Source of the DNA: Bimastos eiseni
Taxonomy: Eukaryota; Annelida; Clitellata; Crassiclitellata; Lumbricidae
Assembly (NCBI GenBank): GCA_959347315.1
Contig: OY365809.1
Coordinates: 2,583,953 to 2,647,952, forward strand
Reading direction: 5' to 3'
Length of the DNA: 64,000 nt
This document shows, piece after piece, positions 2,826-62,343 of this stretch. The notes below the pieces were generated by a model. The model was given only the letters and a program-made list of their open reading frames with translations. It did not search any database and was not told the origin of the DNA. Within the stretch, counting starts at the first letter, position 1. Every line of letters starts with the position of its first letter. The translations under genes and the position numbers were made by a program.

Positions 2826-3451
2826 CAAAGAGCAACTGCATCATCAATTATTATCGACATCAATATCAATAGTAACAACAAGATCAGTATTCCAGCCAAC
2901 AACAGCATTTGCCAAACAATTGTTTTTGTTGTCGAATTTTTACATTTTCGTCATTATCCTTACCACAATTCAGCCACCAATTAACTCAAAACTAGTTAGT
3001 TGTTGAACCTTAGCGTTGTCGATACTTGGAGGACAGTTGCTATGTTCCAGACTTGGAATTTAAATCATCGTGAGGACGTTACGTAACCTAATTATGCTGG
3101 AGTTTCTTAAGCAGAAGATATTCAGTTTAATCATGCTCGAAATAGCTGGAAAACTATCACTAGCCAGCTCTCACGTAGGCTGCTCTAGCATCCATCGTGT
3201 GTGTAAACTTCTGCATTAGTCAAATAAGTGTGGGCCTCAATCCTTCTGATGTGACGTAGCCCTTGGCTTTGGAGCAGCGCTCTAGATAATATGGGATTAT
3301 ATACAACTTCGAATTGCGAAATTTCGTATAGGGAGTAAACTGAGAGAATGATTAGGATGATTATTTATTTAACGCATCACGCGATTATATAACATGGCTT
3401 GATATAATCATAAAGGTGTATACGAAGACATTCAAATCAACCGGTTGAGTG
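2826..3451. other. No recognisable gene
   Basis: Intergenic sequence. I see no exon, tRNA, transposon terminus or promoter motif I would defend. Confidence 0.5.
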
Positions 3452-5096: not shown

Positions 5097-5233
5097 TCTG
5101 CCATGGTAGTGATTTCAGAGACTGTTGGAAAATATAACCAAACGTTTATCTCTTCTTAAGAGTTTTTTCAGGCATTCTTTATCCGAGGCAAGGGTCAGAC
5201 AACACCAGGAAGGGAAGCCTTAGCATTATTATT

Positions 5234-5660
5234 GTTCAACAGTTTAACGACATCTTATAGCAACACAGGCTGTTGACGTCTTCAGAATTTGTTACATTTC
5301 AGTTCAATTTCGTAAATAGTTTTAATCCTTTATCTTTGTGTTGTCTTTCTTTCTTTAGTCTTTCTGTTTTCTTTCTTCCTTTTGTGTTGTTATTGATTCC
5401 ATTTCTGCATGACTGGTTGCTGAGACAGCAATATTCGACATATGGTTGTTGTAGATATTTCATAACATATAAATGATTATTACATTTTATTCCTACATAT
5501 ATAAACATACATATTGTATAAATGTATATATACATACAATGTACAAACATACATATGTGAAATTTATTCGTGTGGCCATATAGCTTCTTGGTTTGTTCAT
5601 GGATGCTCTTTTTTGACCGTATCTGTTCTTTTGTTTTTCAGTTTTACCCCATGAGGGCTG
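5234..5660 (-). ncRNA. Family B structured-RNA element with 3' hairpin
   Basis: Transcribed leftwards if active. The body contains 'ggaatcaataacaacac' and an 'agaaagac' purine tract, ending in the hairpin at 5240-5280: outer stem GACGT/ATGTC, inner stem CAAC/GTTG, a 7-nt loop AGCCTGT, then GTCGTTAAACTG. It is very similar along its whole length to 50163-50580 (minus), and its purine tract and hairpin match 25090-25320 (plus). It lies just downstream of the PSE/TATA unit at 5690-5848, so it may be a 3' extension of that unit or a separate copy. No coding potential. Confidence 0.5.
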
Positions 5661-5684: not shown

Positions 5685-5786
5685 ATCCGGGAGTTTAACG
5701 ACCGCTTTTGACAACAGAGGCCGTTGCAGTCGACAGAAATTTCCTTGGCATATTACAGCACTTACAGCTCCAATTTTGCTTAATTA
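5685..5786 (-). ncRNA. Family 1 small structured RNA unit (about 93 nt)
   Basis: Predicted start near 5786, 29 bp after the TATA box at 5815, running left to the end string GTCGTTAAACTC near 5692. The body contains 'gctgtaagtgctgtaatatg' and 'ccaaggaaatttctgtcg'. The terminal hairpin has outer stem GACTG/CGGTC, inner stem CAAC/GTTG and loop GGCCTCT. Relative to the copies at 10334 and 11901 the outer stem has changed while pairing is kept. There is no T-run after it that would suit Pol III termination. The function is unknown. Confidence 0.5.
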
Positions 5787-5808
5787 ATACAATGTCTCAC
5801 GAGCTTTT

Positions 5809-5848
5809 AATTATAGCTTCCGATAAGAAATATTAGAGGTGTCTAAAA
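5809..5848 (-). promoter_or_regulatory. snRNA-type promoter (PSE + TATA), minus strand
   Basis: TTAGACACCTCTAATA with TATAATTA starting 28 bp after the G of GACACC. It drives towards the family 1 hairpin element at 5685-5786. A second PSE-like match lies just upstream (5898-5912, minus: TTTAGACACCTTTAAAA), but it has no TATA at the right distance. Confidence 0.55.
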
Positions 5849-6664: not shown

Positions 6665-6706
6665 CTTTAGACACCTTTAATATGTAGTCAACAGAAACTA
6701 TATAAG
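6665..6706 (+). promoter_or_regulatory. snRNA-type promoter (PSE + TATA)
   Basis: TTTAGACACCTTTAATATG with TATATAAGG exactly 29 bp from the G at 6670 to the T at 6699. Expected start near 6728. A family 2 hairpin lies on the same strand about 240 bp downstream (6972-7043). Confidence 0.6.
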
Positions 6707-6971
6707 GATACGACACTACCAAAGTTTCGCAATTTGTCGCAAACAGCGCAACATCGATTTTTGAAGGAATGAATGAACTTGTCTTCTGTTGGATCGTCGG
6801 TATATGCTAATTATGCTTTCAGGGATGTCTTAGTTTCAGTCGATCTGTTTGTGAAGAAGTGTTGGTAGGTCTATTTCTGTCGTCTTGTCCATGTCTTGGG
6901 TTTAGTTTCTCCCTATCGATTAGCGCAATAAGTACGTTAAAATTGGCTGGGAATATGCTCAAATTCCGGTA

Positions 6972-7043
6972 GTGCCAGTCCCAAGCCTTTAGAAAGGAGG
7001 GATCGACGACAATCAAATTCGTTATGACACAGTTTCGATAAAC
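6972..7043 (+). ncRNA. Family 2 hairpin element (3' part of a unit starting near 6728)
   Basis: 'gtgccagtcccaagcc', 'aaaggagggatcgacgac' and 'gttatgacacagtttcgat' followed by AAAC. The hairpin is recognisable but the end reads TTTCGATAAAC instead of GTGTCGTTAAAC. The inferred transcript from the promoter at 6670 would be about 315 nt. Confidence 0.5.
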
Positions 7044-7052
7044 AGCGGCCAA

Positions 7053-8992: not shown

Positions 8993-9172
8993 TATTAATA
9001 AAATAATGAAATACGTGTGAAAATGCAACATAAACGTGTGCAGGATGTCACAAAATCACTCAAATCTGCAGTTATTTTTACACACTTTAAAACATATTTA
9101 TAGTAACCATACATGTATAGATGTATACGAGCAGTTTAATAGAACCAGATTCCTCCGCTGCAAGTATTCTCA

Positions 9173-9248
9173 CAGTGCCAGTCCCAAGCCTGGATAAAGA
9201 AGGAGGGCGTCGCTATTGATCTTTGTTGTCACACAGTGTCGTTAAACT
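9173..9248 (+). ncRNA. Family 2 hairpin element
   Basis: One of the best-kept copies: 'gtgccagtcccaagcctgg', 'ataaagaaggagggcg', then the hairpin (inner stem TGAT/GTCA, loop CTTTGTT) and the end GTGTCGTTAAACTG. A poor PSE-like string (ACACACTTTAAAA near 9080) has no TATA at the expected distance. Confidence 0.6.
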
Positions 9249-9774
9249 GAATCTAACTCACTATTAATGAAAATATAACTAATGCGGAGGTGCAACAATT
9301 TCATACATGTCACATACCACAGCAATAAAATCATTTCAGAAAAAAAGTTGTTTAAAAGTATCTATTATTAAAAAAACAGAGTTCGTTTAAGTGTGAAATA
9401 ATATTAGATCAAGAATAAGTGATTATGATGAAAAATATGACAAAATTCTTTGGAGTAGTAATTATCGAAGTATATTGTGCTGTAAACAAAACACTAGTTG
9501 ATGAAAGAAGAGGTGTGCATAAGGTCAAACCTTTTGGGACCATAAACGATCAAGGACATCTACGTTCTTTTGACTGACAGTCATGACCTCTTTGTAGGCC
9601 TACCTCGGACTCGGACAGCTTCTGCCCAATGCCGCGTTCATAAATGCGTCTGCTGGCCCTTTGTTTGGGAACGATTACCCCTCTCCCACTAGCTCGTGAT
9701 TTTATCTGGAATGCTTCTGTTTCTGTTCGTATTGTTTAGACTCTTCTTTTAGCGTGGGGCTCTTTTTCAGGTGG

Positions 9775-10333: not shown

Positions 10334-10422
10334 ATGGATCCAGGGTTTAACGACAGCTTATGACAACAGAGGCAGTTGCCGTCGACAGAAATTTGCTAGG
10401 CATATTACAGCACTTACAGCTA
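10334..10422 (-). ncRNA. Family 1 hairpin element
   Basis: The minus strand reads 'gctgtaagtgctgtaatatg', 'cctagcaaatttctgtcgac', then the hairpin: outer stem GACGG/CTGTC, inner stem CAAC/GTTG, loop TGCCTCT. It ends GTCGTTAAACCC. The promoter at 10745-10780 (minus) lies about 300 bp upstream on the same strand, with a 35-nt foldback (10647-10682) and a dispersed repeat in between. Confidence 0.55.
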
Positions 10423-13120: not shown

Positions 13121-13122
13121 AG

Positions 13123-13161
13123 TATATAGCTACAGTTGAAAATGATTTAGAGGTGTCTGTA
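13123..13161 (-). promoter_or_regulatory. snRNA-type promoter (PSE + TATA), minus strand
   Basis: AGACACCTCTAAATC with TATATACT exactly 29 bp on (G at 13157, T at 13128). The downstream RNA element is not identified; the nearest same-strand hairpin is 1.1 kb away. Confidence 0.5.
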
Positions 13162-13444
13162 TCCTTGATAAAATAGGAGTGCGTCATAAATAGAAGCAAA
13201 CTAACTTAAACCTCATCTATGGTGCAACAGACGTCGTTGAACTTTTAGATCCAATCAGACACCACAAAAATACCAATTAACCTGAGCGGTTCCTTAAATA
13301 TCGCTTAAATTTTTTGCATATCTTCTCCAAAATAGAATAGAAGCAATAGTAACGTGTTAGAAGAGCCTTACCATGCCTACTGCTGGATGTACAAGTATAA
13401 TTACAATTATCTGGGCTACAACAAGATATAAAGTCAATGTTTCA

Positions 13445-13965
13445 CTTGAGATTTAACGACTTCTTTCCAGTAGTATAATGAACAATCTATAAGGAATGAG
13501 CCAAAACTCAGATCGAAACTCTGCTTGGTCCCAGTTTTCTAGTACTCGACATCACTCGGATTAGGACAAATAATGGGTCCGAATAACAATTTGTTTTGAA
13601 AAAATCTGAATCATTAATCTACAAAGCGACAATCGACCTAATTGAAAACTAAAATACTTTTATTTTTACCTACAAAACAACAATCTGCCTAATTATAAAC
13701 CAGAATTCTGTAAGTTATGACACCTCCAAATTAAAATTAAGAGATCACGACTTTTTTTAAATACTCGAAACTCTGACTCGGAAAATTTTAGCTCTCAATA
13801 CTCGGTACTCGGACTCGGAAAGTAATTCAAACTCGGTTCACCCCTATAATCTATCGCGCGCCGTCATTGTGCGGGTATGTTCGTTATTTGCTTTGCTCAG
13901 TTACATTGCTGAATGCTGATCAATCAATACAATGGAGTATTTTGAAGATGACTGGGATATTAAAT
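13445..13965 (-). ncRNA. Family 3 element, split by a transposon
   Basis: Shares its flanks with 15385-15540 and 27640-27785. The minus strand ends 'ggaaagaagtcgttaaatct' after a GC-rich 'gcccgcacaatgacggcg'-like block. The two halves (13445-13496 and 13847-13965) are separated by an insertion of about 350 bp. A weak PSE (ATACCCCTTTTAA, near 14010 minus) with TATGAATA about 29 bp on could be its promoter. Read on the plus strand the right end gives a short frame starting MEYFEDDWDI, so a transposon-coding origin is an alternative. Confidence 0.35.
13497..13846. mobile_element. hAT-like non-autonomous insertion
   Basis: Interrupts a family 3 element. The flanks repeat AATCTAT at both junctions (7-8 bp, the hAT target duplication length). 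The right end, reverse-complemented, starts TAGGGGTGAACCGAG; the left end is a degenerate match. The interior is rich in 'actcggactcgg'. No transposase. Confidence 0.5.
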
Positions 13966-15384: not shown

Positions 15385-15540
15385 TTTTGACTCACTCGAG
15401 ATTTAACGGTTTCTTTCCAGCAGTGATACATATCACGCGCAGTCATAGTCCGGGCAAACTGAGTAAAATTTTGATTTGTTTACTGACATTGCTGATCATT
15501 GAATGCACTTCAATGCAAAGTAGAATCTGAAAGAAGTTTA
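15385..15540 (-). ncRNA. Family 3 element
   Basis: Uninterrupted copy. The minus strand ends 'ctggaaagaaaccgttaaat' and contains the block around 'gactatgactgcgcgtgat'. The end differs from the family's GTCGTT (ACCGTT here). It lies head-on against a plus-strand family 1 element at 15565. Confidence 0.35.
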
Positions 15541-19185: not shown

Positions 19186-19227
19186 CTTAGACACCTGTAA
19201 GATGTTAATGCAGTACGCTATAATAAG
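19186..19227 (+). promoter_or_regulatory. snRNA-type promoter (PSE + TATA)
   Basis: CTTAGACACCTGTAAGATG with TATAATAAG exactly 29 bp downstream (19190 to 19219). The bases after TATA, 'tataataagtatctcatt', match the unit at 21139. No hairpin element found downstream. Confidence 0.55.
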
Positions 19228-21098: not shown

Positions 21099-21147
21099 CT
21101 TAGACACCTTTAAATCTTTCAATAGCAACACAAAACACTATAATAAG
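21099..21147 (+). promoter_or_regulatory. snRNA-type promoter, long spacing
   Basis: CTTAGACACCTTTAAATC, then TATAATAAG 36 bp from the G at 21103. This is 7 bp longer than the usual 29, the only strong PSE with that spacing. A family 2 element follows on the same strand. Confidence 0.5.
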
Positions 21148-21167
21148 TATCTCATTTGCATCAATTG

Positions 21168-21300
21168 AACATCGCTCGCCTTCGAAGAATCAATATTGCC
21201 ACACTCCACTGCTCGTACTCTAGAACTGCCAGTCAAAAGCATTGATAAAGAAGGAGGGCAACGATAATTACCTTGGTTATCGCACAGTGTTGTTAAACTC
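21168..21300 (+). ncRNA. Family 2 small structured RNA unit (about 130 nt)
   Basis: Predicted start near 21168. The conserved part spans 21205-21300: 'ccactgctcgtactctagaa', 'ctgccagtcaaaagcattg', 'aaagaaggagggcaacg', then the hairpin and GTGTTGTTAAACTC. Here the usual GGCGACG/GTGTCGTT stem reads GGCAACG/GTGTTGTT: a G-C pair has become A-T, which keeps the helix. The inner stem is ATAA/TTAT. This is the clearest compensatory change I found. Confidence 0.6.
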
Positions 21301-21352
21301 CAACTACTACTACTACCTAACCACCTAACTTCGCAAATTCTAACGCTTAAGC

Positions 21353-22220: not shown

Positions 22221-22262
22221 ATTAGACACCTTTGATAAGGCTCTTGATGAGATTATAATAAA
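22221..22262 (+). promoter_or_regulatory. snRNA-type promoter (PSE + TATA)
   Basis: AATTAGACACCTTTGATAAG with TATAATAAAA exactly 29 bp on (22225 to 22254). No hairpin element found in the next 500 bp. Confidence 0.55.
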
Positions 22263-23984: not shown

Positions 23985-24024
23985 CTTAGACACCTCGAAT
24001 ATGTTTATAAAAAAATTATAAGTA
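23985..24024 (+). promoter_or_regulatory. snRNA-type promoter (PSE + TATA)
   Basis: CTTAGACACCTCGAATATG with TATAAGTA 28 bp on (23989 to 24017). Confidence 0.5.
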
Positions 24025-24104
24025 AATAATTATCTCGTTCGTATCATTGAATTCAAACACTTCTCTCAATTGTGTAGGCCTACTCTTCACATTGCAACTC
24101 AGCC

Positions 24105-24165
24105 ACTGTTCGCACTCTTGCTGGTAAATGGCAATCGAGGCTAATACATATGCAGTTGAAATTCC
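24105..24165 (+). ncRNA. Truncated family 2 element
   Basis: 'gccactgttcgcactcttg' then 'ctggtaaatggcaatcgagg' keep the 5' half of family 2; the hairpin half is missing. Same strand as the promoter at 23989. Confidence 0.4.
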
Positions 24166-24243
24166 CACCAGGGTAGAAATTTCGCTCAGAAATTCTCTTC
24201 ACTCACTAGTGTAGGCCTACTTACTACAATTGATCGATAATAT

Positions 24244-24289: not shown

Positions 24290-25085
24290 GACAAAGTAAT
24301 TGTATATAGAGCGTGTTCACCGCTTTACACACCATCTAAAAATTGGAACAAGATCATAAAATAGGTTTTAATTTCAAAGATATGATGATATCGTATAACG
24401 TCAGACGCCCAAATTTAAAATGGACGGTCTAAGTGGCCGCATAATGTCGATAGAGATTCTTTCATTTTAGCTAACAACATCATTAACCCTTACCGATCCA
24501 ATTACTATATCAAATGCATTCAAACTGGCCGATCACAGCGGCATTAGGATGAGTAAGGGTAAATAGAAGCTGAGTATAATGAGACAAGAAAGGTTGCAAA
24601 TATACACACCCTATCCAGTTAAATACACCAGATCTAGTCCAATCGTATAAACCGGGAAAACATCAACGTAGCATGGACCTATAGTCTAATTTGAACTTGA
24701 TTTTATTATATAAGTATGGTATTATTGAAAACATGATAATTATTATGCTGGATTCAAGAGCATAGGAAGCTCATTGATTTTCCTCTAAGTGGAGAACAGT
24801 TAAAAACGACGTTAATATTTATTGCAAGAAAGTCTTCCATTAAACACCTTCAAAACACTTTTGTTTAAAATTATATTAATAATTAGTCAATGTATACTAT
24901 ATAATTTATTGTATGTGTATATAGATGGAATAGACATATCACGTGTTTATCAGGATGACGCATATCAATTAACTCATGTGATCTCAGTAGCATGCATACA
25001 GATTATAGTGGTTTATAGATGTATAAAAATAATAATTGTAGGTTTAATATTATAATTCATAATATCTTATAATTATGTTATAATT
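24290..25085. other. No recognisable gene
   Basis: AT-rich intergenic DNA. A short 'ttaacccttaccgatcc ... gagtaagggtaaa' inverted pair (24483-24562) could be a tiny piggyBac-type MITE but is too short to call. Confidence 0.35.
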
Positions 25086-25089
25086 AAAT

Positions 25090-25322
25090 TACATTGTTAA
25101 ATAATAATGGAATCAATAACAACACGTAAGGAAGAAAGAAGACAAATAGACTAAAGAAAGAAAGAAAACAGAAAGACTAAAGAAAGAAAGAAACAGAAAG
25201 ACTAAAGAAAGAAAGAAAACAGAAAGATAAATGATTAAAACTATATACGAAATTGAACTGATATGTAACAAATTTTAAAGACGTCAACGGCCTGTGTTGC
25301 TATAGGATGTCGTTAAACTGTT
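25090..25322 (+). ncRNA. Family B structured-RNA element
   Basis: 'ggaatcaataacaacac', three copies of 'agaaagactaaagaaagaaa' and the hairpin at 25280-25320: outer stem GACGT/ATGTC, inner stem CAAC/GTTG, loop GGCCTGT, end GTCGTTAAACTG. Sister to 5234 and 50163 (both minus). No PSE/TATA within 300 bp upstream. Confidence 0.5.
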
Positions 25323-25479
25323 GAATAATAAATAAACATCATCAATACCGTTCCTGTCAAGCTCCAAAATTTCCTATAAATCCTCCTTGGTCATAAAGTG
25401 ATATAAAAGTTGATCTTAGCCTTCACAAATCGGTAAATAAGAAATTAGACAATTTGGAATTTATTCGTCTTTTTTCATT

Positions 25480-27639: not shown

Positions 27640-27862
27640 TTGTCAATTGAGATTTAACGGCATCTTTCCCGTAGATTATTTAACAATCACTCGCACGTGA
27701 TCACAGCGCGGGCATACTCCGCATTTGTTATGTTTAGTGATATTGCTACATAAAATATGAATTTTGAGGATTTCTTTGATATCAGTCTCGGTGTGACGAC
27801 AACTATACTTGATTTGTTTGATTGTAAGATTCTGTTGGGCACAACGGGCCTGTAGTCAGCTG
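27640..27862 (-). ncRNA. Family 3 RNA unit
   Basis: Predicted start near 27862, 29 bp after the TATA at 27891. It ends 'gggaaagatgccgttaaat' near 27650. Length about 210 nt. The region 27640-27785 is shared with the family 3 copies at 13445 and 15385. Read on the plus strand it offers a short frame MNFEDFFDISLG, comparable with MEYFEDDWDI at 13931, so a transposon-gene origin is the main alternative. Confidence 0.4.
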
Positions 27863-27883: not shown

Positions 27884-27925
27884 TATATATATGTTAATGT
27901 GTAAACGATGTAAAGGTGTTTTAAT
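27884..27925 (-). promoter_or_regulatory. snRNA-type promoter (PSE + TATA), minus strand
   Basis: TTAAAACACCTTTACATCG with TATATATAC exactly 29 bp on (27920 to 27891). Confidence 0.55.
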
Positions 27926-29328: not shown

Positions 29329-29369
29329 TTTAAACACCTTTAACACAGAGGCTCCAAAGGATATATCAT
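29329..29369 (+). promoter_or_regulatory. snRNA-type promoter (PSE + TATA)
   Basis: ATTTAAACACCTTTAACAC with TATATCAT exactly 29 bp on (29333 to 29362). A weak hairpin end, 'gacgcagagcgcaataaact' then 'aaggtgttaaacagag' (29441-29472), follows on the same strand. Confidence 0.5.
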
Positions 29370-31167: not shown

Positions 31168-31249
31168 CCAACATTTATTGAATTATGTTATCTGCATCCT
31201 TTAGAGACAAATATTCGATACTAAAAAATTATTAGAGGTAGCTAGTTGC

Positions 31250-31360
31250 AGTTTAATGGCACTGTGTGCTAACATAGACCATTAGCGACGCCGTCCTCCT
31301 TCGTTCATGCTTGGGACTGGCACTGCCAGGGTCCAACAAGTGATGATGCTCAAAAAATTT
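31250..31360 (-). ncRNA. Family 2 small structured RNA unit (about 110 nt)
   Basis: Predicted start near 31360 (TATA at 31389 minus). It contains 'ctggcagtgccagtcccaag', 'gaaggaggacggcgtcgc', and the hairpin with end GTGCCATTAAACTG. A compact unit comparable in length with 21168-21300. Confidence 0.55.
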
Positions 31361-31382
31361 ATTAGAAGGCGAAGTATATGCA

Positions 31383-31424
31383 TTTTATAAAATATATGTC
31401 AAGCAACCTAAAGGTAGCTAAAAT
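31383..31424 (-). promoter_or_regulatory. snRNA-type promoter (PSE + TATA), minus strand
   Basis: TTAGCTACCTTTAGGTT with TATAAAATG exactly 29 bp on (31418 to 31389). GCTACC replaces GACACC, yet spacing, TATA and the same-strand family 2 element all fit. Confidence 0.5.
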
Positions 31425-31985: not shown

Positions 31986-31997
31986 TTGCTTTAGTTT

Positions 31998-32375
31998 GTG
32001 CTGCCAGTTCAGCGTCTAGATAAGAATTTAGTTAAGTGCTGTTTATGCATTCATTCGTCTAAAGTTAAGGACGAACTTCTTACTTGTGCGCTTTGCTATA
32101 AAAGTTTTCATTTGTCTCACCTTGATGTACCTACTACTACTATTGATTCGTGGTTTTGTAGTGCCTGCCTGTCGCAGTCGTTTCCTTTTAATCATGTGAC
32201 TGATGATAATGATTTTGCTCAGTGTATTCTTGAAGATAGGGCTGTTCGTCATTCACTTCATAAACTGAGGGAAGGACCACGTCTTGACCTATTTACCTAT
32301 TTACCGACACTAATCTTGATCGCCCGCTACTCAATAACAATGGCCTTGATCCTGACGAGCATTATTACACAATGA
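31998..32375 (+). pseudogene. LINE ORF segment: PHD finger
   Basis: About 125 residues. Zinc ligands are visible as VKCCLCIHSS, LTCALCYKSFHLSHL and WFCSACLSQS, a C4HC3-type PHD pattern. The right end of the frame (after FAQCILEDRAVRH) is probably shifted. It has no upstream splice site and lies directly before the endonuclease, so it belongs to the LINE and not to a host chromatin protein. Confidence 0.75.
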
Positions 32376-32474
32376 GACCAGGCCTCTGCACCTATAAATG
32401 TCCCCTCTTCCATTGACTTTGCAAGTAAGTGTAACTCTGGACTTCTATCTATACTGCACTTAAATTGTCTAAGT

Positions 32475-33344
32475 ATGATTGGGAAGCTATCGTGTATCGA
32501 GGACCTTTTGTCTAGAACAGCGACTGACATATTAGCAGTCACTGAAACGTGGTTAGATGATAATCTAGTAAACTCAGTTCATATTCCTGGCTATAACTTT
32601 GAATTTCGCTGTAGATCTACAGGTCGGGGTGGAGGCGTTGGTTTTTTCATAAAAGTTTTCATAAAGTATCATCCTTATAGTCTACCTGTTAATTGCCTCA
32701 CTCATGTAACATATGAATCCCTCTTTCTCCGCTTTCCTTGTAGTAATAATGGTACTTTCTTCATAGTTGGTGTACTATATAGACCTCCAGGTCACAACCT
32801 AGATCTTTTCAATAATGAATGGAACACCCTATTAACGGTTTTAACATCAAAGGACAGGGACTCCTTCATAATAGGAGATTTTAATATTGACTTGCTCAAG
32901 GCACAGGATCATAAATTGACCAATAATTTCCTGGACATTGCTTCATCTCATCACTTTCTCCCAGTCATTACCCAACCGATGCGAATCACAGCTTCCTCCG
33001 CTTCTCTAATAGACAACCTCTTTACAAATCGGGTCTTTACAATCCTGGAGTCCAATATTCTAATTGAGGATATATCTGATCATCTGCCAATTATGGCATA
33101 TGTTGAAATAACGCCAACATTTTATACCGATCCCGTTATTAATCATAGTCGATGTTTTGACGCAAAATCTAAAGAACTTTTCAAGACCCTACTATCACAA
33201 GCAGACTGGTCTTGTGTAAAGGATTCGTGTGATGCAAATGATCCGGATACAGCTTATAACTTGTTTAATCATAAATTTACCAGTGTGTATGACATCGCTT
33301 TCCCTCAGACTATAACAAAACCTAAGTCAAGGAATATATTTTAG
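32475..33344 (+). pseudogene. LINE ORF segment: AP-type endonuclease
   Basis: About 289 residues. Motifs: VTETWLDDNLV (catalytic Glu region), RGGGVGFFIK, VGVLYRPPGHN, FIIGDFNIDLL (Asp/Asn pair), TASSASLIDNLFTN and ISDHLPIMAYVE (catalytic DH). All core residues of the exonuclease-endonuclease-phosphatase fold are present. It ends at a stop before the RT region, where an intact element would read on. Confidence 0.85.
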
Positions 33345-33544
33345 CAGCCTTGGATGACACCTGCCCTACTATGATCATGTAAAAATAAGGCAAAACTTCA
33401 CAACGCTTATGTGAGGAACCCAAATCCTGCCAATAAGTTTAAAACGTCACGAAAAATATGTGAAAGAAATTTCTATGTTTCGGAATTCACAAAGTATAAC
33501 AACGACCTTAAACAAACCTGGCAAACCATTAAAACTATATTAAA

Positions 33545-33808
33545 GTGAAATCTTCGCACTTGCCAATTAAATCCATAATCTCTGGTAGTGTTGAATTGAC
33601 GGATGCTAAATTGATTGCTGAAAAATCCAATAACTATTTTACGAGCATAGCTCAAGAACTTGTCGACAAGATACCATCCTCTCTTGCATTCTTTTCTGAC
33701 TACCTTGGTCCACCTCAACTTAGTTCCTTTGCTGTCCATCCTGTTACTCCTAACGAGTTACTCAAGCTCGCCCGGTCTTTGAAAAAATACACACTCTTCT
33801 GGACATGA
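33545..33808 (+). pseudogene. LINE ORF segment: linker before RT
   Basis: About 87 residues with AEKSNNYFTSIAQELVDKIP, the 'fNxyF...i' linker that precedes RT in CR1-like elements. A frameshift near 33790 breaks the link to the next segment, whose start (SSGHDDINPSLVTPL in another frame) is the expected continuation. Confidence 0.7.
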
Positions 33809-33860
33809 CGACATCAATCCTAGTTTAGTTACTCCTTTACTGAACCTGATCGCTAATCCA

Positions 33861-34418
33861 TTGACTAATATTATAAATTGCTCTCCAACTACTGGCACTG
33901 TTTCTTCTCTCTTGAAAATAGCCAAAGTCATACCTGTACATAAACAAGGCCCAAGTGAACTCATTACTAATTATAGGCCCATTTCAATCTTGCCTTTCTT
34001 TTCTAAGTTATTGGAAAAAGTCATGTATTCACGCCTTTCTGACTTTATTAGTAAAAATAACTTTCTTTGTCCACTTCAACACGGTTTCCAACCAGGCCAT
34101 TCCACGATGATGTCCCTACTACACCTACAGGAAAACATATCTGCTGCCATTGGCCGTAATGAATACTCTATCGGCGTTTTTATTGACATTTCTAAAGCTT
34201 TCGATACTGTAAACCATGATTTATTAGTATCAAAATTGGCTAACTTGGGTGTTCGAGGGATGGCCTTAGCTTGGTTCCAAAGCTATCTAGCTGATAGGCA
34301 CCAATATGTATACTGCAACGGTTCGATATCTAGCACTAAATTAATTAGATATGGTGTACCTCAAGGTTCCATCCTAGGTCCCCTTCTTTTTTTGGATCTT
34401 TGTCAACGACTTGCCTAG
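33861..34418 (+). pseudogene. LINE ORF segment: reverse transcriptase, first part
   Basis: About 185 residues. KIAKVIPVHKQG, NYRPISILPFFSKLLEKVMY, LCPLQHGFQPGHST, IGVFIDISKAFDTVNHDLL (motif A) and [13 protein letters not shown] (motif B). It ends in a frameshift (extra T in a T-run near 34390) before motif C. Confidence 0.85.
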
Positions 34419-34866
34419 TGCCTCGAGTCTCCTTCATTTTTTATTACATGCAGACGATACCAACATATTTGCATCACACGCATTTTATGATAAGCTAATT
34501 GCATTAATGAACCAGGAACTTACTCATGTCAACGAATGGTTTACTGTAAATAAACTGTCACTCAACGTCACTAGGACCAATTATATCCTCTTTACTTCTC
34601 ATTGCAAGCATCTTCCTGCCAATATAGGTGTTCTGAGTATAAATAATATCCCCATTCCCAAAGTCATCTCAATAAAATTCCTGGGGGTCTATGTAGATCA
34701 ATATCTTACTTGGAACAGTCACATTGAAATGTTAGCATCAAAAGTAGCCAAAAATATAGGAATAATATTTAGAATTGCCTACCTGTTACCAACTCATATG
34801 CGCCTTAGCCTATACTATTCCATGGTCCATCCTTACTTAACTTATTGTAATCTTGTATGGGCTTGA
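34411..34866 (+). pseudogene. LINE ORF segment: reverse transcriptase, second part
   Basis: About 151 residues. Motif C reads LLHADDTNIF; both catalytic aspartates are present but His replaces the usual aromatic residue. Then EWFTVNKLSLNVTRTNYILF, KFLGVYVDQYLTWNSHI and MVHPYLTYCNLVWA, ended by a stop at 34864. Confidence 0.85.
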
Positions 34867-35869: not shown

Positions 35870-35911
35870 ATTAGACACCTTTATTAATCATATTCAGTTG
35901 TTTATATAATT
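35870..35911 (+). promoter_or_regulatory. snRNA-type promoter (PSE + TATA)
   Basis: GATTAGACACCTTTATTAATC with TATATAAT exactly 29 bp on (35874 to 35903). Expected start near 35932; a family 2 element lies on the same strand at 36281-36375. Confidence 0.6.
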
Positions 35912-36280
35912 TTTCCGGGGTAGTTTCCTTAAACAGCAAAGCGTTTCGAAACTTAATCGTAACAAGGTTTCAAGGGTGACAATCTTTGACGTGTAACAAA
36001 CTTTTTAACGTGACATCATCAATCTCAGAAGCGCATAACAAACAACTTTAGAGCATGGAAATTTAAAATAGCGTAAGCAACCTATGAAGGTGGCAGCCTT
36101 GGAAACTAGTGAGCTAAGACAGATTCTTGCGTTAGAATGCGGCATCACTAGAACAGTGCTTTCCATAAAAGGGTTCCAACCTTTGAGACTGGCAATCTTA
36201 AAATGTTACCGCACTTAGCACGGCATGGCACCATCCTTGGAAGTTAGGAGATTTCAATTATGATATAATGTGATAAATCC

Positions 36281-36375
36281 GTCACTGCTAGAACTGATGT
36301 AGTGCCAGTCCCAAGCCTAGATAAAGAAGGAGGGCGACTCTAATGACCTGTGTAATGTACAAATGTACCATGAGA
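36281..36375 (+). ncRNA. Family 2 element (3' part of a unit starting near 35932)
   Basis: 'gtgccagtcccaagcctag', 'ataaagaaggagggcgact', then a decayed hairpin; the GTTAAAC end is missing. The inferred transcript would be about 440 nt. Confidence 0.45.
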
Positions 36376-36379
36376 CAGA

Positions 36380-39391: not shown

Positions 39392-39441
39392 ACCTCTAAG
39401 AAGTTCAAACATGCGATCGCATGTTTGAACTTCTTAGAGGT
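39392..39441. repeat. Perfect 50-bp palindrome without spacer
   Basis: Arms begin ACCTCTAAGAAGTTCAAACA and meet at GCGATCGC with no mismatch that I can find. Either a real DNA palindrome or an assembly foldback. Confidence 0.9.
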
Positions 39442-39978: not shown

Positions 39979-40021
39979 TTTAAACACCCTTAATATAGTT
40001 TTGTGCAGATAATATATAAAT
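39979..40021 (+). promoter_or_regulatory. snRNA-type promoter (PSE + TATA)
   Basis: TTTAAACACCCTTAATATAG with TATATAAA 30 bp on (39983 to 40013). No hairpin element identified downstream. Confidence 0.45.
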
Positions 40022-43487: not shown

Positions 43488-46169
43488 CTGTTAAAGAATA
43501 AAGTAAATGATCTCAAGAATAATTGTAATCGTAAGAAGCGAAGGAAATAGAATAATTATTATGATGCTTAAGACGACGATAATGATGATGTCGATGATGA
43601 TGATGATGACGATGACGATGATGGTACCGATGTTGGTGATGATGATGGTAATTATGTAGGTGATGATGATGGTACTTATGATGGTGGTGATGATGATGGT
43701 ACTTATGCTGGTGATGATGATGGTAATTATGTTGGTAGTGATGATTGCAATTATGTTGGTGATGATGATGGTAATTATGTTGGTGGTGATGATTGCAATT
43801 ATGTAGGTGATGATGATGGTACTTATGATGGTGGTGATGATGATGGTACTTATGTTGGTGATGATGATGGTAATTATGTTGGTGGTGATGATTGCAATTA
43901 TGTTGGTGATGATGATGGTAATTATGTAGGTGATGATGATGGTACTTATGATGGTGGTGATGATGATGGTACTTATGCTGGTGATGATGATGGTAATTAT
44001 GTTGGTGGTGATGATTGCAATTATGTTGGTGATGATGATGGTAATTATGTAGGTGATGATGATGGTACTTATGATGGTGGTGATGATGATGGTACTTATG
44101 CTGGTGATGATGATTGTAATTATGGTGGTGGTGATCACATCGACTTTTGTCCACAGTCTCAACAAGAGTAGGCCCTAATGTTCTATTCTCATTTTTTTAT
44201 ATCTCAATATTTAGCACAAAACGGATACAATCGTATCTAGGACACGCAACGTTTTGTGTAAAATAGAACTCCTCCGCTGCTCACACCCTGGCAGTGCCAG
44301 TCCCGTGCTTGGATAACAGTGGTGGGCTACTCGGATGATCTTTGATAGCACACAGTATCGTTTAATTGAAACTACAACTATTGTGTGAAAATAAAGCACC
44401 TTCGCAGGACCAAAATCTGACAATGGTGTAGGGCCATTTGCGTAAAAGTTTAGGTACTTACGGTTGAACAGTACACCTTCGGCCATCCACCTCAAGGAAC
44501 TCGGGAAGAACAGTCTCCTTGCGATTAAAGATCAACCGTTCCAACCCTACTCTAGCAGATGCCCGTCCCATGCATAGGATGATGCGCACGGCATCGCTGG
44601 CCATCTTTGTTAAGAGTCGGTTTAGTGAAACAGCAATTAATAACCCAATTTCATAATTATTCGAATAAGCTATACTAATTGTTTTTAGTAGTGCATGAGT
44701 CAGCATTGATGACCACATCTGTTTCAATTCGTCGACATCTTCTTATTCATGAAGTGCTTATAACCATAACCATAACCATCACCACGTGTTTCTATTATCC
44801 ATCTCATGCAATTAAACACAAGAATAAGAATGCATGAAAAACGGTAATAAGAGTGATAATAGGGAAAGTAAACTCCAAAGGGACCGATTGGTCCCGCTAG
44901 TAGGGCCTACCCTTTACAATTTGATATTGGGCAACAGGTACATACAATTGAAACATAACTCATCATCTTAACTAGTTGACTAATGCTGTCTGTGCACACG
45001 CCAATTATTTAGAAAGGGTAGTTAACAAATATTTTTTAAATTTATTTTTAAAAACTTTGATTATTATTTTTATTTAGCCAACGTTGCGGGTAAGGTTTTG
45101 GTACATTCATGAGATGTCGCTGAATATCGACGCTGGTGCAAGTTTTGTCGTTCAAGTGATTACAATGATTGAGTCAACTTTTGCGTAGACACCCTTAAAG
45201 TTATTTCAGTGAAAGCTATATAATTGTGTTTCCCGTTGGAGCGTTAGTGTGCGGAAAGAAAAGCTAGCCGAAAGAGGCCAAAAAAGAGTCCAAGTGACCA
45301 AAAAATACGAAATACCAAAAAAATATACAAAATAGAAAGAGGAAAAACAATATAAAGAAAACAAAAAAGAGAAAAAAGGAGAGGAAAACTGAAGAGGAAA
45401 AAATTATACAAAAACAATCAGAAGAGCCGATTGGCCAATATCAATTACATAAATAAATAAATATTGTAAAGACGTCAACGGCCATTGTTGCCATACGACG
45501 TCGTTAAACCTCTGAGAATTGAAATTGAGCGTTAGCATAATCGTATTTTCTTAGCACTTTCCTCATGAAATGAGAGTTAAATGACCTGACAGCCACACGA
45601 TCTATCCACCCCACCCATTAATTCAATCATTCTAAGCATTCATATAGCGCCTCATAGGTAATCAAATGCCAGTGTGTTGTTACAAACATTCCTTCTCGCT
45701 CTCTGCAGTTTCAACAGTGGACCCTAACATATCACTTTTTTACGGAAAAAGATATTTCAATGAACGTAGCTTCTGTTGGTCTACTTCAACTTAGACACCT
45801 TTAAAGTGGTTCATATCCAAGCTATATAAACGTCAATGTCAGTATCCTTTCTCAAGATAAGGTTCATTACAAATCTCTCTGTTACTCGGGCAACGATAGA
45901 AATGGCTCATATGGTGCTTCCCTTTGTGGATTCCTACTTAGGTGATTGCTTCCCCATACTATACCCTCTAGGATTTTCATTCTGGTCTCTCAATAGGTTA
46001 TAGCTGCTTAAAGACATTTTAATTTTGTTATACAAAAGTGCGTTAAAGTTCTCGTCGCTATCAGGCTGAACGAAAGAGCCTCTGAGTTCCACTGTATTAA
46101 AACGTTGTGTACAAAAAAATAGATAGACTTTGAAAAAGATGAGTTGTTTCTCGTGGGTCTCCCGTTGTC

Positions 46170-50083: not shown

Positions 50084-50162
50084 GGTTTGTTATATCTAGC
50101 GATTGCTATGTTTCGTTGTAAAACATTTAAATTGCATAACCTGGCTGCAACCATTATTATTG

Positions 50163-50660
50163 TTCAACAGTTTAATGACATCTTATAGCAACACAGGCTG
50201 TTGACGTCTTCAGAATTTGTTATATTTCAGTTCAATTTCGTATAAAGCTTTAATCCTTTATCTTTATGTTGTCTTTCTTTCTTTTGTCTTTCTGTTTTCT
50301 TTCTTCCTTTTGTGTTGTTATTGATTCCATTTCTGCATGACTGGTTGCTGAGACAGAAATATTTGACATATGGTTGTTGTAGATATTTCATAACATATAA
50401 ATGATTATTACATTTTATTCCTACATATATGAACATACATATTGTATAAATGTATATATATACATACAATGTACAAACATACATATGTATAATTTATTCA
50501 TGTGGCCATATGGCTTCTTTCTTTGTTCATGAAGGCTCTTTCTTGACCTTATCGGTTCTTTTCTTATTTCAGTTTATTTCCCATTAAGGCTTTCTTTCCA
50601 TCTTATTTACAGAGCATCAAAACAATTTCCTTACACCGCTGATACTAAAAATTTCCTTTC
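50163..50660 (-). ncRNA. Family B RNA unit (about 500 nt)
   Basis: Predicted start near 50660. The body from about 50580 leftwards is nearly identical to 5650-5234, including the TATG-rich stretch and the purine tract 'agaaaacagaaagac'. It ends in the hairpin at 50169-50207 (GACGT/ATGTC, CAAC/GTTG, loop AGCCTGT) and ATGTCATTAAACTG. A frame of 85 codons across it is low complexity. Similarity to 5234 suggests recent duplication. Confidence 0.5.
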
Positions 50661-50684
50661 GACAGTTGGAGAAAGCGAGATTTG

Positions 50685-50722
50685 TTATAGAACCGTGTTA
50701 ACAGAATAGAAAGGTGTCTAAG
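50685..50722 (-). promoter_or_regulatory. snRNA-type promoter (PSE + TATA), minus strand
   Basis: CTTAGACACCTTTCTATTC with TATAACAAA exactly 29 bp on (50718 to 50689). Confidence 0.6.
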
Positions 50723-56643: not shown

Positions 56644-56810
56644 ATCGCTTCTTAACCTTTTGGCTAAGATGAAAGTGTTTACTTACTTGTCAGCTTAAAA
56701 CCTGATACGTACATTAACCTCGGTTGCGTGATCAGATTAATACCTGATCCGCTATTCCTGGTTTTAGTACGAGAAGCTACGGGAGACGCTACGGTATCCT
56801 CCGGCTTCTC
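56644..56810 (+). ncRNA. U2-like snRNA (divergent copy or derived RNA)
   Basis: The 5' end ATCGCTTCTTAACCTTTTGG, followed by CTAAGAT, matches U2 snRNA positions 1-27 except CGG to TAA in stem I. The next part, 'tgtcagcttaaaacctgata', resembles U2 stem-loop IIa. The branch-point recognition sequence GTAGTA of U2 reads GTTTAC here, so it should not pair with normal branch points. A second IIa-like hairpin (GATCAG ... CTGATC) follows, and the RNA ends in a 40-nt hairpin closed by GAGAAGC/GCTTCTC. The Sm site is unclear (GGTTTTAG near 56759). About 167 nt against 185-190 for U2. A correctly placed TATA and no poly(A) argue for a gene-level duplicate and not a retrocopy. Confidence 0.65.
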
Positions 56811-56814
56811 AATC

Positions 56815-58080
56815 TCCCCACTGAGGGAGATAATTAAAACAAAAATAAAACAGTCTAGGCCTACTAAGTTCAGGGCGTGATGGTTCGTAACATTCCCTTC
56901 TGGGAAATCTTTGCAGAGTGGGTCTTTGGCTATTTGCTAGGGTGCTCAAAGGGAGAAGGGCTAGGAGTTGAATGAAAACTTCCGATGAGCCAAAAAACAC
57001 AAGTTATTACAAAGCAGAAGCTTGACAGGTAGTGTTAGACCGCAAAGGAGTGCTGCCCAACACGCGTATAGCATGCTGCCCGTGGATGGATTTTAACACC
57101 CTAGAAACACATGCCTTAGAATTCAGAAATTTGCAAAACAAAATAGGTCATGGCGATGTCCTTGACATCAGGATGCTGCATCTGTAAAAATATTGACTTT
57201 ATCTGTAGAAATAAAAAAGTTTCTCAGTTCCCCGATTTCCGGGGTTTTCGGGTTACCCGATTCCAATTTCACTGATTAACCAATCAGCAGCGGGGGTAAT
57301 AGTGTGAGTAGTGATAGTGGTAATGTTAGAATGGGAAGTAGCGGAAGCTGCAGTAAGTCACATCAGTAGCAGATGAAGCAGAGCTAAACATCTCTCCTCG
57401 TAACATGTTCCTGCTTCGTTCCTCTTCTCTAACGTCGTCTCAAATTGATCTATGGTTCTCCCGCACTCAGTTTTAGTCCAAACGCCACGCTCTGTCAAAC
57501 GTCAGCCTCCGAACCCGTCAACTGCCCACTCATCCAACATCCTACCCAACATCCCTCCCCAGTTCCAGGTGATTCATCTTCCCGCCAGTTTCCTTCGCCT
57601 TTTCCAGCCAATTACCATCGTCAGTGGACACAACTTTCCAATCAGCCTCTGTTTCCACGATTACCCCAAGCTGGTCCCTAAGTCATCTAGTGTCCGCTAA
57701 TGGACGAATGGCGTTGGTTCGAATCCCTCTGGTCTTCTAAATCACTCACCAAAAACATCAACTCAGCAACGAATTAGCGATAGTTAAAAGAGCTCGCGTG
57801 CAGCGCTTCCCCGATGACGTATGGGGTTGTTTGGTTTGTTGCTAATGGTGACAAACGAGCAGGTTGCTGCGCGTTGTATATAAATAGGGAGTCTTGACAT
57901 AGGAAGTTACAGGAGTCTGCTGTTCAAAGAAGCAAAGGTATTTCCGGAGGTGGCATCGCTTGGAAGGACGGCAACGACTTTAGAACCGCACCAACTAGCT
58001 TCGACAGTATGCACACTTATTTCTTAAATTATAATTGTAATTGTAGATAAACTGTAAGTGCAAGAGTCTTCTTCTTGTCC
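56815..58080. other. No recognisable gene
   Basis: Intergenic. 'gttggttcgaatccctctgg' near 57712 looks like a tRNA B box, perhaps an old SINE. Confidence 0.4.
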
Positions 58081-62070: not shown

Positions 62071-62071
62071 T

Positions 62072-62152
62072 GCGGTAAAGTTTACGGTAAAATGGAAAAT
62101 GATGAGTTTGAAGTTCAAACTCATCATTTTCCATTTTGGCAAACTTTACCGC
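62072..62152. repeat. 81-bp near-perfect palindrome
   Basis: Arms begin GCGGTAAAGTTT and include 'aaaatggaaaatgatgagtt'; the centre is 'ttgaagttcaa'. A mismatch near 'acggt/ggc' is the main break. It ends 19 bp before the PSE at 62171. Confidence 0.85.
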
Positions 62153-62166: not shown

Positions 62167-62207
62167 CTTCGACACCTTCGAAACCCTGCTTAATGATGCT
62201 ATAAATA
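62167..62207 (+). promoter_or_regulatory. snRNA-type promoter (PSE + TATA)
   Basis: CTTCGACACCTTCGAAACC with TATAAATAC exactly 29 bp on (62171 to 62200). The PSE core differs from the others (TTCGAAA), the spacing does not. Confidence 0.55.
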
Positions 62208-62228: not shown

Positions 62229-62318
62229 CGAATTACCTTTTTGCAGTACAAATGCTACTAGTCCCAAGCCTGGATAAAGAGGAGGACGATCAATGATCAT
62301 TGTGATGACAGACTGATC
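62229..62318 (+). ncRNA. Family 2 small structured RNA unit (about 85 nt)
   Basis: The shortest promoter-to-hairpin unit. From the expected start near 62229: 'aatgctactagtcccaagcc', 'tggataaagaggaggacg', 'atcaatgatcattgtgatga', end CAGACTGATC. The conserved GTTAAAC end is absent. Confidence 0.45.
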
Positions 62319-62343
62319 TCTTCGTCCTATGATAGTGCCAAGA

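What the first reader, a model, noticed from the sequence alone, without database searches (positions are those of the whole stretch)
5685..5848. Promoters and hairpins are coupled on the same strand: a family of small RNA genes
In at least ten loci a hairpin element lies downstream of a PSE/TATA on the same strand: 5843- to 5690, 6670 to 7043, 10777- to 10334, 21103 to 21300, 23989 to 24160, 27920- to 27650, 31418- to 31250, 35874 to 36375, 45188 to 45510, 50718- to 50169 and 62171 to 62318. Only 31130 faces its neighbour the wrong way. Inferred transcripts are about 85-500 nt with diverse bodies and a common 3' end. A retroposed copy would lose an upstream promoter, so the coupling argues for gene-level duplication or DNA-level mobilisation, and not for ordinary SINEs. 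I know of no described family with this layout.
Basis: inference. Interest (0 to 1): 0.9.

Follow-up and report, generated by a model that had tools for sequence, protein, structure and literature searches.

The report
Retroposons landing on snRNA-type promoters
Short jumping sequences with a ribozyme-like start and a hairpin tail sit, in the readable direction, just after the start point of small-nuclear-RNA-type promoters far more often than chance allows, which suggests that they aim for such promoters and borrow them.

Summary
The promoters and their coupling to hairpins are real; the small-RNA-gene reading is not the best one. The window holds 19 PSE/TATA sites with the geometry of this 660-Mb genome's own U2 genes (PSE at -62, TATA at -31). 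Eleven of 19 have a same-strand hairpin within 600 nt downstream (2.6 expected at random). The hairpin is the 3' tail of abundant short retroposons with short-repeat tails and, where readable, target-site duplications. Family A also carries a degenerate twister ribozyme at its 5' edge. Readable duplications leave the promoter outside: they span, adjoin or lie just beyond the predicted start site (5846-, 31421-, 45185+, 23986+; genome loci L023, L043, L045). Of 40 genome-wide promoters chosen blind to what lies downstream, 16 have a sense element starting +52 to +180 from the PSE, against 2 antisense; the leaders in between are unrelated. So retroposons insert downstream of existing promoters; the promoter is recruited, not copied. 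The promoters are exceptional too: 169 exact matches against 0 in the control, in megabase-scale, mostly terminal domains, without a shared downstream sequence. That recalls nematode 21U-RNA loci. Tethering, transcription and promoter activity are inferred.

The parts
5807..5846 (-). PSE/TATA promoter of the finding; predicted start site about 5786
   Evidence: core with 1 mismatch, TATA offset 30, score 32.8
5690..5768 (-). retroposon family B1 at that start site (5' edge +78), with hairpin, TTAAAC and ATCC tail
   Evidence: homology to 10421, 11987, 15559; TSD CATTGTATTAATT 13/13 at 5794-5782 and 5679-5667
31382..31421 (-). PSE/TATA promoter
   Evidence: score 23.6, offset 31
31248..31347 (-). 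family A retroposon at the start site (5' edge +74)
   Evidence: TSD TCTAATAAATTTTTTGAGCATC / TCTAATAATTTTTTAGTATC at the 5' edge, p<0.003; CM 52.8 bits
45185..45224 (+). PSE/TATA promoter
   Evidence: score 33.5
45248..45526 (+). A-rich retroposon with B-type hairpin tail at the start site
   Evidence: TSD GAGCGTTAG 9/9 at 45239-45247 and 45527-45535 (p 0.44 in an unconstrained search, so its position is the argument); hairpin 48.9 bits
23986..24025 (+). PSE/TATA promoter
   Evidence: score 29.6
24095..24211 (+). degenerate family A copy (5' edge +109)
   Evidence: 46% to the A consensus, similarity mainly in its first part; TSD around GTGTAGGCCTACT, p 0.020-0.026
62168..62207 (+). PSE/TATA promoter
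   Evidence: score 30.1
62231..62339 (+). family A copy (5' edge +63), diverged 3' part
   Evidence: twister-P1 26.8 bits, E 0.17, at 62230-62291; no significant TSD
21100..21146 (+). PSE/TATA promoter (TATA at +38)
   Evidence: exact core
21204..21301 (+). family A copy (5' edge +104); leader resembles that of 23986, so possibly the same event
   Evidence: CM 51.4 bits; no TSD found; leader p<0.005
6667..6706 (+). PSE/TATA promoter; family A copy 278 nt downstream
   Evidence: score 35.6; exact genome-wide pattern match
6945..7046 (+). family A copy
   Evidence: CM 39.3 bits
10741..10780 (-). PSE/TATA promoter; B1 copy 360 nt downstream
   Evidence: score 29.9
10342..10420 (-). family B1 copy with TSD CCGCCTCTTGC... 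reaching its 5' edge, about 330 nt from the PSE
   Evidence: p 0.009
35871..35910 (+). PSE/TATA promoter; family A copy 403 nt downstream
   Evidence: score 28.9
36274..36376 (+). family A copy with the best twister match of the window
   Evidence: RF03160 36.6 bits, gathering 67.2
50682..50721 (-). PSE/TATA promoter
   Evidence: score 30.1
50152..50591 (-). 440-nt repeat with B-type tail; 93% to 5224-5659
   Evidence: similarity starts +130 from the PSE
24840..24879 (+). PSE/TATA promoter, not listed in the finding
   Evidence: score 23.2, not used in training
24992..25331 (+). same repeat family as 50152-50591; 24992-25231 is 97% to genome locus L056, where it starts at +54 of another PSE
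27884..27923 (-). PSE/TATA promoter
   Evidence: score 24.1
27641..27720 (-). third tail type (related to 13442-13488 and 15392-15460)
   Evidence: nhmmer; no CM match
45791..45830 (+). best-scoring PSE/TATA; no listed tail within 600 nt downstream
   Evidence: score 41.3; exact genome-wide match
3384..3423 (-). PSE/TATA; a B tail ends 26 nt upstream
19187..19226 (+). PSE/TATA; B-like tail just upstream; shares about -110..+55 with 21100 and 23986
22222..22261 (+). PSE/TATA; an A tail ends 44 nt upstream
13121..13160 (-). PSE/TATA without a listed tail within 600 nt downstream
29330..29369 (+). PSE/TATA; other repeat sequence from +146
39980..40020 (+). PSE/TATA without a listed tail within 600 nt downstream
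9150..9250 (+). family A copy without a clear PSE (weak match 74 nt upstream, p 0.09)
   Evidence: twister-P1 32.5 bits
59633..59733 (+). family A copy without PSE
   Evidence: CM 53.5 bits, twister-P1 31.5 bits
44268..44369 (+). family A copy with TSD and without PSE
   Evidence: TSD p 0.012

Best explanation
Two things are superposed. (1) Pre-existing snRNA-type promoters: a PSE at about -62 and a TATA box at -31, the geometry of this genome's own U2 genes. They occur in dense clusters, and the window lies in one. (2) Short non-autonomous non-LTR retroposons, probably of RTE type. They have a fixed 5' edge (in family A a degenerate twister ribozyme, with the edge at the expected cleavage site), a two-step hairpin followed by TTAAA and a short tandem repeat at the 3' end, and target-site duplications. 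These retroposons integrate preferentially, in sense orientation, from the start site to about 120 nt downstream of it, so a new copy is placed under a promoter it did not bring. Most likely the integration machinery is drawn to the promoter complex (SNAPc/TBP) or to its open start site; the element RNA is then made from the borrowed promoter and the ribozyme trims its 5' end. Shown by sequence: promoters and geometry, elements, positions, orientation bias, unrelated leaders, TSDs with the promoter outside. Inferred: tethering, transcription, ribozyme action, benefit.
For: Promoter; U2 geometry in 8 loci; T/A context strongest exactly 30 nt after the C of CTATAA, rank 1 of 108 offsets. Position: 5 of 21 A/B1 5' edges lie +50..+115 sense from a PSE; 0 of 1,719 shifts and 0 of 4,000 random placements reach this; antisense 0; 4 of 20 without the weakest copy. 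Independent DNA: 3 of 9 PSEs in L009-L030, random mean 0.225, fraction 0.0006. Forty genome-wide promoters, chosen from the 100 places printed without sight of what lies downstream: 16 sense elements at +52..+180, 2 antisense. Seven more have other repeats starting +53..+142, among them a 97% copy at +54 in L056 and a 97% copy at +53 in L069 whose twin L023:6068 has no PSE of score 16 or more upstream in that locus. Leaders are unrelated: 7 of 231 pairs at p<=0.05, 11.6 expected. TSDs with the promoter outside: one search searched up to 350 nt upstream of the tail, PSEs included, and put the best match at or after the start site for 5846-, 31421-, 23986+ and 45185+; L023 12/12; L043 p 0.008 and L045 p 0.037. 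Family A: seven weak twister matches in the window.
Against: Most elements are not at a PSE: 16 of 21 in the window, 20 of 21 in the 200-kb sample. 24 of 40 promoters have no sense A/B1 element downstream. TSDs reach p<=0.05 in a minority: 5 of 19 (expected 1) and 3 of 16 (expected 0.8); two searches looked only near the 5' edge or after +28, so they cannot by themselves place the promoter outside. 5' edges spread over 130 nt rather than one spot. Window twister matches are below the Rfam cut-off and P1 is largely unpaired. Local alignments spanning PSE, leader and element exist (for example L057 with 5854-5682, 73%; L048 with 21100-21322, 68%), although their leaders are not alike. 21100 and 23986 have alike leaders and may be one event. 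No partner LINE was established; the RTE label rests on a relic read by eye and one literature sentence. No expression data.
Confidence: 0.8

Rival explanations
1. One reading: a family of small-RNA genes (promoter, diverse body, hairpin 3' end) spread by gene-level or DNA-level duplication; promoterless copies are its retropseudogenes.
For: Strict same-strand coupling; a local triplet shares about 165 nt across PSE and TATA and 21100/23986 share their leader; an inverted PSE pair exists in the flank; some local alignments span promoter and element; clustering of promoters.
Against: TSDs between TATA and element; leaders otherwise no more alike than shuffles; 5' edges vary from +52 to +180; different element families and a LINE relic occupy the same place; no covariation within family A.
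Confidence: 0.1
2. No targeting: insertions are frequent everywhere in terminal domains and the coupling reflects local density or survival.
For: Element density is higher beside the window: 14 hits in 20 kb of flank against 21 in 200 kb elsewhere.
Against: Even that density predicts about 2.4 sense elements in the tested 170-nt windows of 40 promoters (arithmetic) against 16 seen, while antisense (2) fits background. The only PSE scoring 20 or more in the 200-kb sample (C11, 2.0 Mb, outside the listed domains) is also occupied, with a perfect TSD.
Confidence: 0.08
3. The promoters belong to a 21U/piRNA-like system of many SNAPc-dependent loci with unrelated products, and retroposons were captured there, by selection for silencing or merely as residents. 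This concerns what the promoters are for and is not exclusive of the best explanation.
For: Megabase-scale clusters on many large contigs; about 40 bp conserved, unrelated flanks; 17 of 40 have no recognised sense repeat downstream.
Against: No small-RNA data; inserted elements are in sense orientation, the wrong strand for simple antisense silencing; a TATA box is present, which I recall is not part of the nematode 21U motif.
Confidence: 0.15

Closest known systems
Ty3 of yeast and TRE5/TRE3/NLTR-A of social amoebae (pol III-gene-targeting retroelements; passages of PMC5911963)
   Same: Integration at or near the start site of small-RNA-type genes; Ty3 at the pol III start site; TRE elements are non-LTR with fixed orientation; TRE5 ORF1 interacts with TFIIIB proteins.
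   Different: They target tRNA and 5S genes; here the targets are PSE/TATA promoters with U2-like spacing and no recognised gene behind them. Elements here are about 100-nt non-autonomous retroposons.
Utopia and Keno (U2-gene LINEs; passages of PMC4640811)
   Same: Non-LTR elements tied to snRNA genes.
   Different: They insert at a sequence inside the U2 gene; here the shared target feature is the promoter, and insertions lie downstream of it in unrelated sequence.
RTE retrotransposons with truncated 5' twister ribozymes (one sentence, 'in preparation', in PMC7761336)
   Same: Twister at the 5' end of RTE-type elements, proposed for 5' processing.
   Different: That passage says nothing of insertion at snRNA-type promoters; here the elements are short, non-coding and hairpin-tailed.
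Metazoan retrozymes (passages of PMC7229834, and PMC7761336)
   Same: Small ribozyme-bearing non-autonomous non-LTR retroelements reported to lack their own promoter.
   Different: Hammerhead rather than twister, tandem repeats, circular RNAs; no promoter targeting in the passages read.
Trypanosomatid Pr77 elements (abstract of PMC8190864)
   Same: TBP/SNAP50-related transcription of retroelements.
   Different: Pr77 is a promoter sequence carried at the element's 5' end; here the promoter is external and outside the TSD.
Nematode 21U-RNA loci (PMC7884074, search listing only; rest recalled)
   Same: Many SNAPc-type promoters, megabase clusters, unrelated downstream sequence.
   Different: Short RNAs not tested; a TATA box is present here.

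Membership tests
snRNA-type (PSE/TATA) promoter | Same element geometry as the genome's own snRNA genes | tested here: met
   U2 loci: ACC of the PSE at -56 in 8 of 8, TATA at -31 in 7 of 8 (L007 unclear), the 25-nt spacing of the window sites (8 of 46 listed U2 matches, not all independent). U6 spacing is longer, 28-32 in 8 loci (counted).
snRNA-type (PSE/TATA) promoter | Bound by SNAPc and transcribed | not testable with these tools
   No chromatin or RNA data.
Twister ribozyme (RF03160) | Score above the Rfam cut-off | tested here: not met
   Seven window copies 23.2-36.6 bits against 67.2, E 2.6e-4 to 1.8. Elsewhere in the genome 6 of 62 listed matches pass; whether those 62 are family A was not examined. 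So: degenerate, twister-derived.
Twister ribozyme (RF03160) | Self-cleavage | not testable with these tools
   P1 is largely unpaired in the two aligned copies.
Non-LTR retroposon | Target-site duplications and a 3' short tandem repeat | tested here: met
   5 of 19 window elements at p<=0.05, 1 expected, L023 12/12; ATCC, ACTA and AAT tails.
RTE-type retroposon | 3' end shared with an RTE LINE of the genome | tested here: inconclusive
   An RTE/BovB-like C-terminal relic at about 22.75-23.15 kb was recognised by eye from memory; a shared 3' end was not shown.
SINE (tRNA, 5S or 7SL derived) | Internal pol III promoter of a known small RNA | tested here: not met
   No tRNA and no Rfam family at its cut-off in the window.
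Promoter-targeting retroelement (Ty3/TRE kind) | Non-random position and orientation relative to the start site | tested here: met
Promoter-targeting retroelement (Ty3/TRE kind) | Physical contact of element protein with promoter factors | not testable with these tools
   none
Small-RNA gene family with conserved structure | Compensatory changes among member genes | tested here: not met
   Family A: twister stems and hairpin no better than shuffles. Between families A and B the hairpin does covary.
Gene family spread by duplication of whole units | Members share sequence between promoter and body | tested here: not met
   Leaders: 7 of 231 pairs at p<=0.05, 11.6 expected; exception 21100/23986.
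21U/piRNA-like loci | Short 5'-U RNAs from each promoter | not testable with these tools
   Only promoter clustering was seen.

The most novel reading that the evidence does not exclude
This animal-like genome keeps well over a thousand orphan snRNA-type promoters (169 perfect copies; roughly 1,600 if the window's ratio of 2 exact to 19 scored sites holds) in megabase domains, mostly near chromosome ends. About 40 bp of each is conserved and the sequences they drive are unrelated, as at nematode 21U-RNA loci. Promoterless twister retroposons use these promoters as landing pads and borrowed promoters, a life cycle in which the target site supplies the promoter.
Probability: 0.25. Interest if true: 0.9.

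Novelty: new variant of a known kind. Interest (0 to 1): 0.76.

Why it matters
How a non-autonomous retroposon without an internal promoter keeps being transcribed is an open problem. Integration just downstream of snRNA-type promoters, with a 5' ribozyme that can trim whatever leader results, would be a simple solution and would extend promoter-directed integration from tRNA genes to PSE/TATA promoters. The clustered orphan promoters raise a separate question: why a genome should maintain so many snRNA-type promoters with no conserved product, which small-RNA sequencing could answer directly.

Tried and rejected
Pol III-type oligo-T terminators soon after the start site: 6 of 19 sites within 45 nt against 4.9 expected, rejected. 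Known RNA families: none at cut-off in the window; most permissive-E miRNA matches fall on simple repeats and palindromes. Relatives in prokaryote and viral collections by exact pattern: none. A decayed PSE upstream of every family A/B1 copy: six strong ones apart, the other 16 do not differ from background (p 0.45), although four weak matches lie at -64 to -74. Proof that the hairpin is the tail of the RTE relic (repeat at 19478, 23234, 29476): not shown. Insertion also just upstream of the PSE: 2 of 19 with tails at -38 and -50, fraction about 0.014, and 3 of 40 genome-wide, left open. Upstream stretches (-60..-4) of 22 occupied promoters show a mild excess of alike pairs (17 of 231 at p<=0.05, 11.6 expected), unexplained. 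I first read several copies as starting exactly at the start site; the 40-promoter sample shows a spread of +52 to +180. Literature: six listings on retroposons at snRNA-type promoters, snRNA-gene targeting and twister retroposons, one on SINE/RTE tails, one on PSEs; nothing seen in those listings describes this coupling, but subscription papers and the 'in preparation' twister-RTE work are not in the library. The organism was not identified.

Full report
Setting. The window is C4:2583953-2647952 of an unnamed 660-Mb genome in 118 contigs. It carries a LINE with endonuclease and reverse transcriptase domains (CR1-like from memory), many microsatellites, and no tRNA or Rfam family at its cut-off.

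The promoter motif is real. Scanning for TTAGACACCTTTAA gives 15 sites with at most 2 mismatches; among these, conservation is confined to the core and to a TATA box about 31 nt after the core start. A two-box score finds 18 sites at 23-41; the maximum in 12 strands of random sequence with the window's dinucleotide frequencies is 17.3, and one more window site, 48040+ at 17.5, is not counted. With 21100, whose TATA lies at +38, I use 19. The score was trained on 17 of these, so the independent figures are the genome-wide ones: the exact pattern TTAGACACCTTTAAN{15,19}TATAWA occurs 169 times in the genome and its reversed control 0 times. The genome's U2 genes have the same layout: ACC of the PSE at -56 in 8 of 8 loci, TATA at -31 in 7 of 8. 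In 8 U6 loci the ACC-to-TATA spacing is 28-32 (counted), so the 25 nt here is U2-like; part of that rests on the spacing range allowed in my scan. The predicted start site, 30 nt after the C of CTATAA, is where a T-to-A context is strongest among 108 offsets.

The promoters are clustered. In 200 kb taken at regular places from three other contigs only 1 site reaches a score of 20, against 18 in the window; because the matrix was trained on the window this overstates the contrast. Two untrained checks agree: the exact pattern occurs twice in the 64-kb window (6667, 45791) against 169 in 660 Mb, and the two 10-kb flanks hold 5 and 2 sites of score 20 or more. The 100 places printed (some are overlapping matches of one site) fall in domains such as C2 0.2-5.4 and 58.3-58.4 of 59.9 Mb, C4 1.9-3.6 and 44.95-44.99 of 46.6 Mb, C1 70.2-70.5 of 71.8 Mb, C9 28.6-33.6 of 35.5 Mb, and, internal, C8 19-27 of 35.5 Mb; contig lengths. 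The other matches were not printed. About 40 bp are conserved, in some pairs up to 60-70; beyond that the flanks of the first 20 fetched sites show no column conservation.

The hairpin is a retroposon tail. Homology finds 34 tails in the window, in at least three types; the covariance model finds 25 at E<0.05, 18 of them by construction. In the random 200 kb there are 18 model matches at E<=0.1, so the elements are genome-wide. A register of types A and B that I set by eye covaries between subfamilies (0 of 500 shuffles). Within family A neither the hairpin nor the twister stems do better than shuffles, as expected of neutrally decaying copies. Tails end in TTAAA plus ATCC, ACTA or AAT repeats. 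Family A is about 100 nt long with a sharp 5' edge at AACTCC. Its 5' part matches the twister ribozyme: seven window copies are among the permissive Rfam matches, best 36.6 bits, E 2.6e-4, cut-off 67.2. The genome lists 62 twister matches, 6 above the cut-off, and none of 14 control genomes has any; I did not check that these 62 are family A. The 5' edge lies at the place where twister is expected to cut (UAA in 36270-36338; the cleavage rule is recalled). Truncated twisters at the 5' end of RTE elements are mentioned, as work in preparation, in PMC7761336 (passages read). The RTE label here rests on that and on a relic recognised by eye.

Coupling. In the window 11 of 19 PSEs have a same-strand tail within 600 nt downstream: random mean 2.6, 0 of 5,000; circular shift fraction 0.0064; strand-flip fraction 0.0014; 1 on the opposite strand. 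Using homology-defined 5' edges of 21 A/B1 copies, 5 lie +50..+115 sense from a PSE (+63, +74, +78, +104, +109); 0 of 1,719 circular shifts and 0 of 4,000 random placements reach 5; antisense 0. Dropping the weakest copy and collapsing the local triplet leaves 4 of 20 (random fraction 0.00005); dropping two more copies leaves 2 (0.009). In sequence not used to build anything (L009-L030), 3 of 9 PSEs of score 19.5 or more have such an element (random mean 0.225, fraction 0.0006; one of the 9 lies at the end of its locus). Forty promoters were taken from the 100 places without sight of what lies downstream, the first 20 spread over contigs with a preference for clean promoters, the second 20 from the rest. 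Sixteen have a sense A/B1 element starting +52 to +180, 2 an antisense one, and 3 a sense tail ending within 130 nt upstream. Seven further promoters (L046, L056, L061, L067, L069, L075, L078) have other repeats beginning +53 to +142; all but L069 appear to be in sense by the orientation of their window relatives (inference). Background arithmetic: 0.36 expected from the random-sample density, 2.4 from the flank density.

Insertion or duplicated units? Some local alignments span PSE, leader and element (for example L057 with window 5854-5682, 73%; L048 with 21100-21322, 68%; L068 with L023, 67%). A direct test of the leaders alone, from after TATA to the element edge, in 22 occupied promoters gives 7 of 231 pairs at p<=0.05 where 11.6 are expected, and of the eight spanning or related pairs looked at by name only 21100/23986 is significant (p<0.005); these two belong to a local triplet with 19187 and may carry one and the same insertion. 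The 57 nt upstream of the PSE show a mild excess (17 of 231).

The promoter lies outside the element. One search searched up to 350 nt upstream of each tail, PSEs included. The best matches for four coupled elements lie at or after the start site: 5846- CATTGTATTAATT 13/13 spanning it; 31421- about 20 nt with 3 differences, at the 5' edge; 45185+ GAGCGTTAG 9/9 at the start site (not significant in that free search); 23986+ around GTGTAGGCCTACT at +74..+108 over. Elsewhere: L023 CTTTTAAATCGA 12/12 at +47..+58 (the only promoter of score 20 in the 200-kb sample), L043 at +39..+52 (p 0.008) and L045 at +44..+61 (p 0.037). Overall TSDs reach p<=0.05 in 5 of 19 window elements (1 expected) and 3 of 16 genome-wide ones (0.8 expected), so most are too decayed to read; two searches looked only close to the element. 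L069 has a 97% identical repeat starting at +53, whose twin at L023:6068 has no PSE of score 16 or more upstream in that locus, and L056 has a 97% copy of window 24992-25231 starting at +54. So repeats and promoters are separable.

Mechanism. The simplest account is insertion in sense orientation between the start site and about 120 nt downstream of it, at promoters that already existed. A promoter-bound complex or an open start site could guide target-primed reverse transcription; a 5' ribozyme would make the exact insertion point unimportant, because any leader is cut off. These steps are inferred. Ty3 and the TRE elements show that such guidance exists at pol III genes (PMC5911963, passages). 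Utopia and Keno insert inside U2 genes (PMC4640811, passages), which is a different target.

Results against. Most elements are not at promoters (16 of 21 in the window; 20 of 21 in the sample), and 24 of 40 promoters have no sense A/B1 element. Local DNA-level duplication of promoters does occur (the triplet; an inverted pair in the flank). Terminator-like T runs are not enriched. There is no expression evidence.

What the promoters are for is open. With the repeats counted, 17 of 40 have no recognised sense repeat downstream; of these two have an antisense family A copy (L055, L073) and one a 20-nt B1 fragment (L053). Dense clusters of snRNA-type promoters with unrelated products resemble nematode 21U-RNA loci; SNAPc-dependent piRNA expression there is the subject of PMC7884074 (search listing only), and the cluster comparison is recalled. 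Small-RNA sequencing would decide.

Noticed in passing
window 56644-56817 (+): A divergent U2-like sequence (31.8 bits, cut-off 46) with CTATAAAA exactly 30 nt before its start but only a poor PSE; probably a decayed U2 gene copy that kept its TATA box.
   Followed up: partly
G000 C7 20.01-20.56 Mb; C8, C9, C10: Large U2 gene array (46 U2 matches listed genome-wide, 35 of them on C7) and U6 groups on C8 and C10; U2 and U6 differ in PSE-to-TATA spacing.
   Followed up: partly
L029 8953 (+) and 9147 (-): Two near-identical PSE/TATA units in inverted orientation about 200 bp apart, with B1 elements; a local inverted duplication of a promoter.
   Followed up: no
window 16858, 17053, 26436 (+): Decayed sequences resembling the longer genome-wide promoter consensus (..AAAACGGTTTCCTCCGACATAATAATA), below the PSE/TATA threshold.
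   Followed up: no
window 62070-62154 and 39392-39441: Near-perfect short palindromes that draw weak miRNA family matches.
   Followed up: no
window 41016-43490 (-): An 824-codon stop-to-stop frame with a repetitive stretch and no Pfam match; possibly a host exon.
   Followed up: no
window 31995-34866 (+): A LINE (CR1-like from memory) with endonuclease and reverse transcriptase domains, broken into several frames.
   Followed up: no
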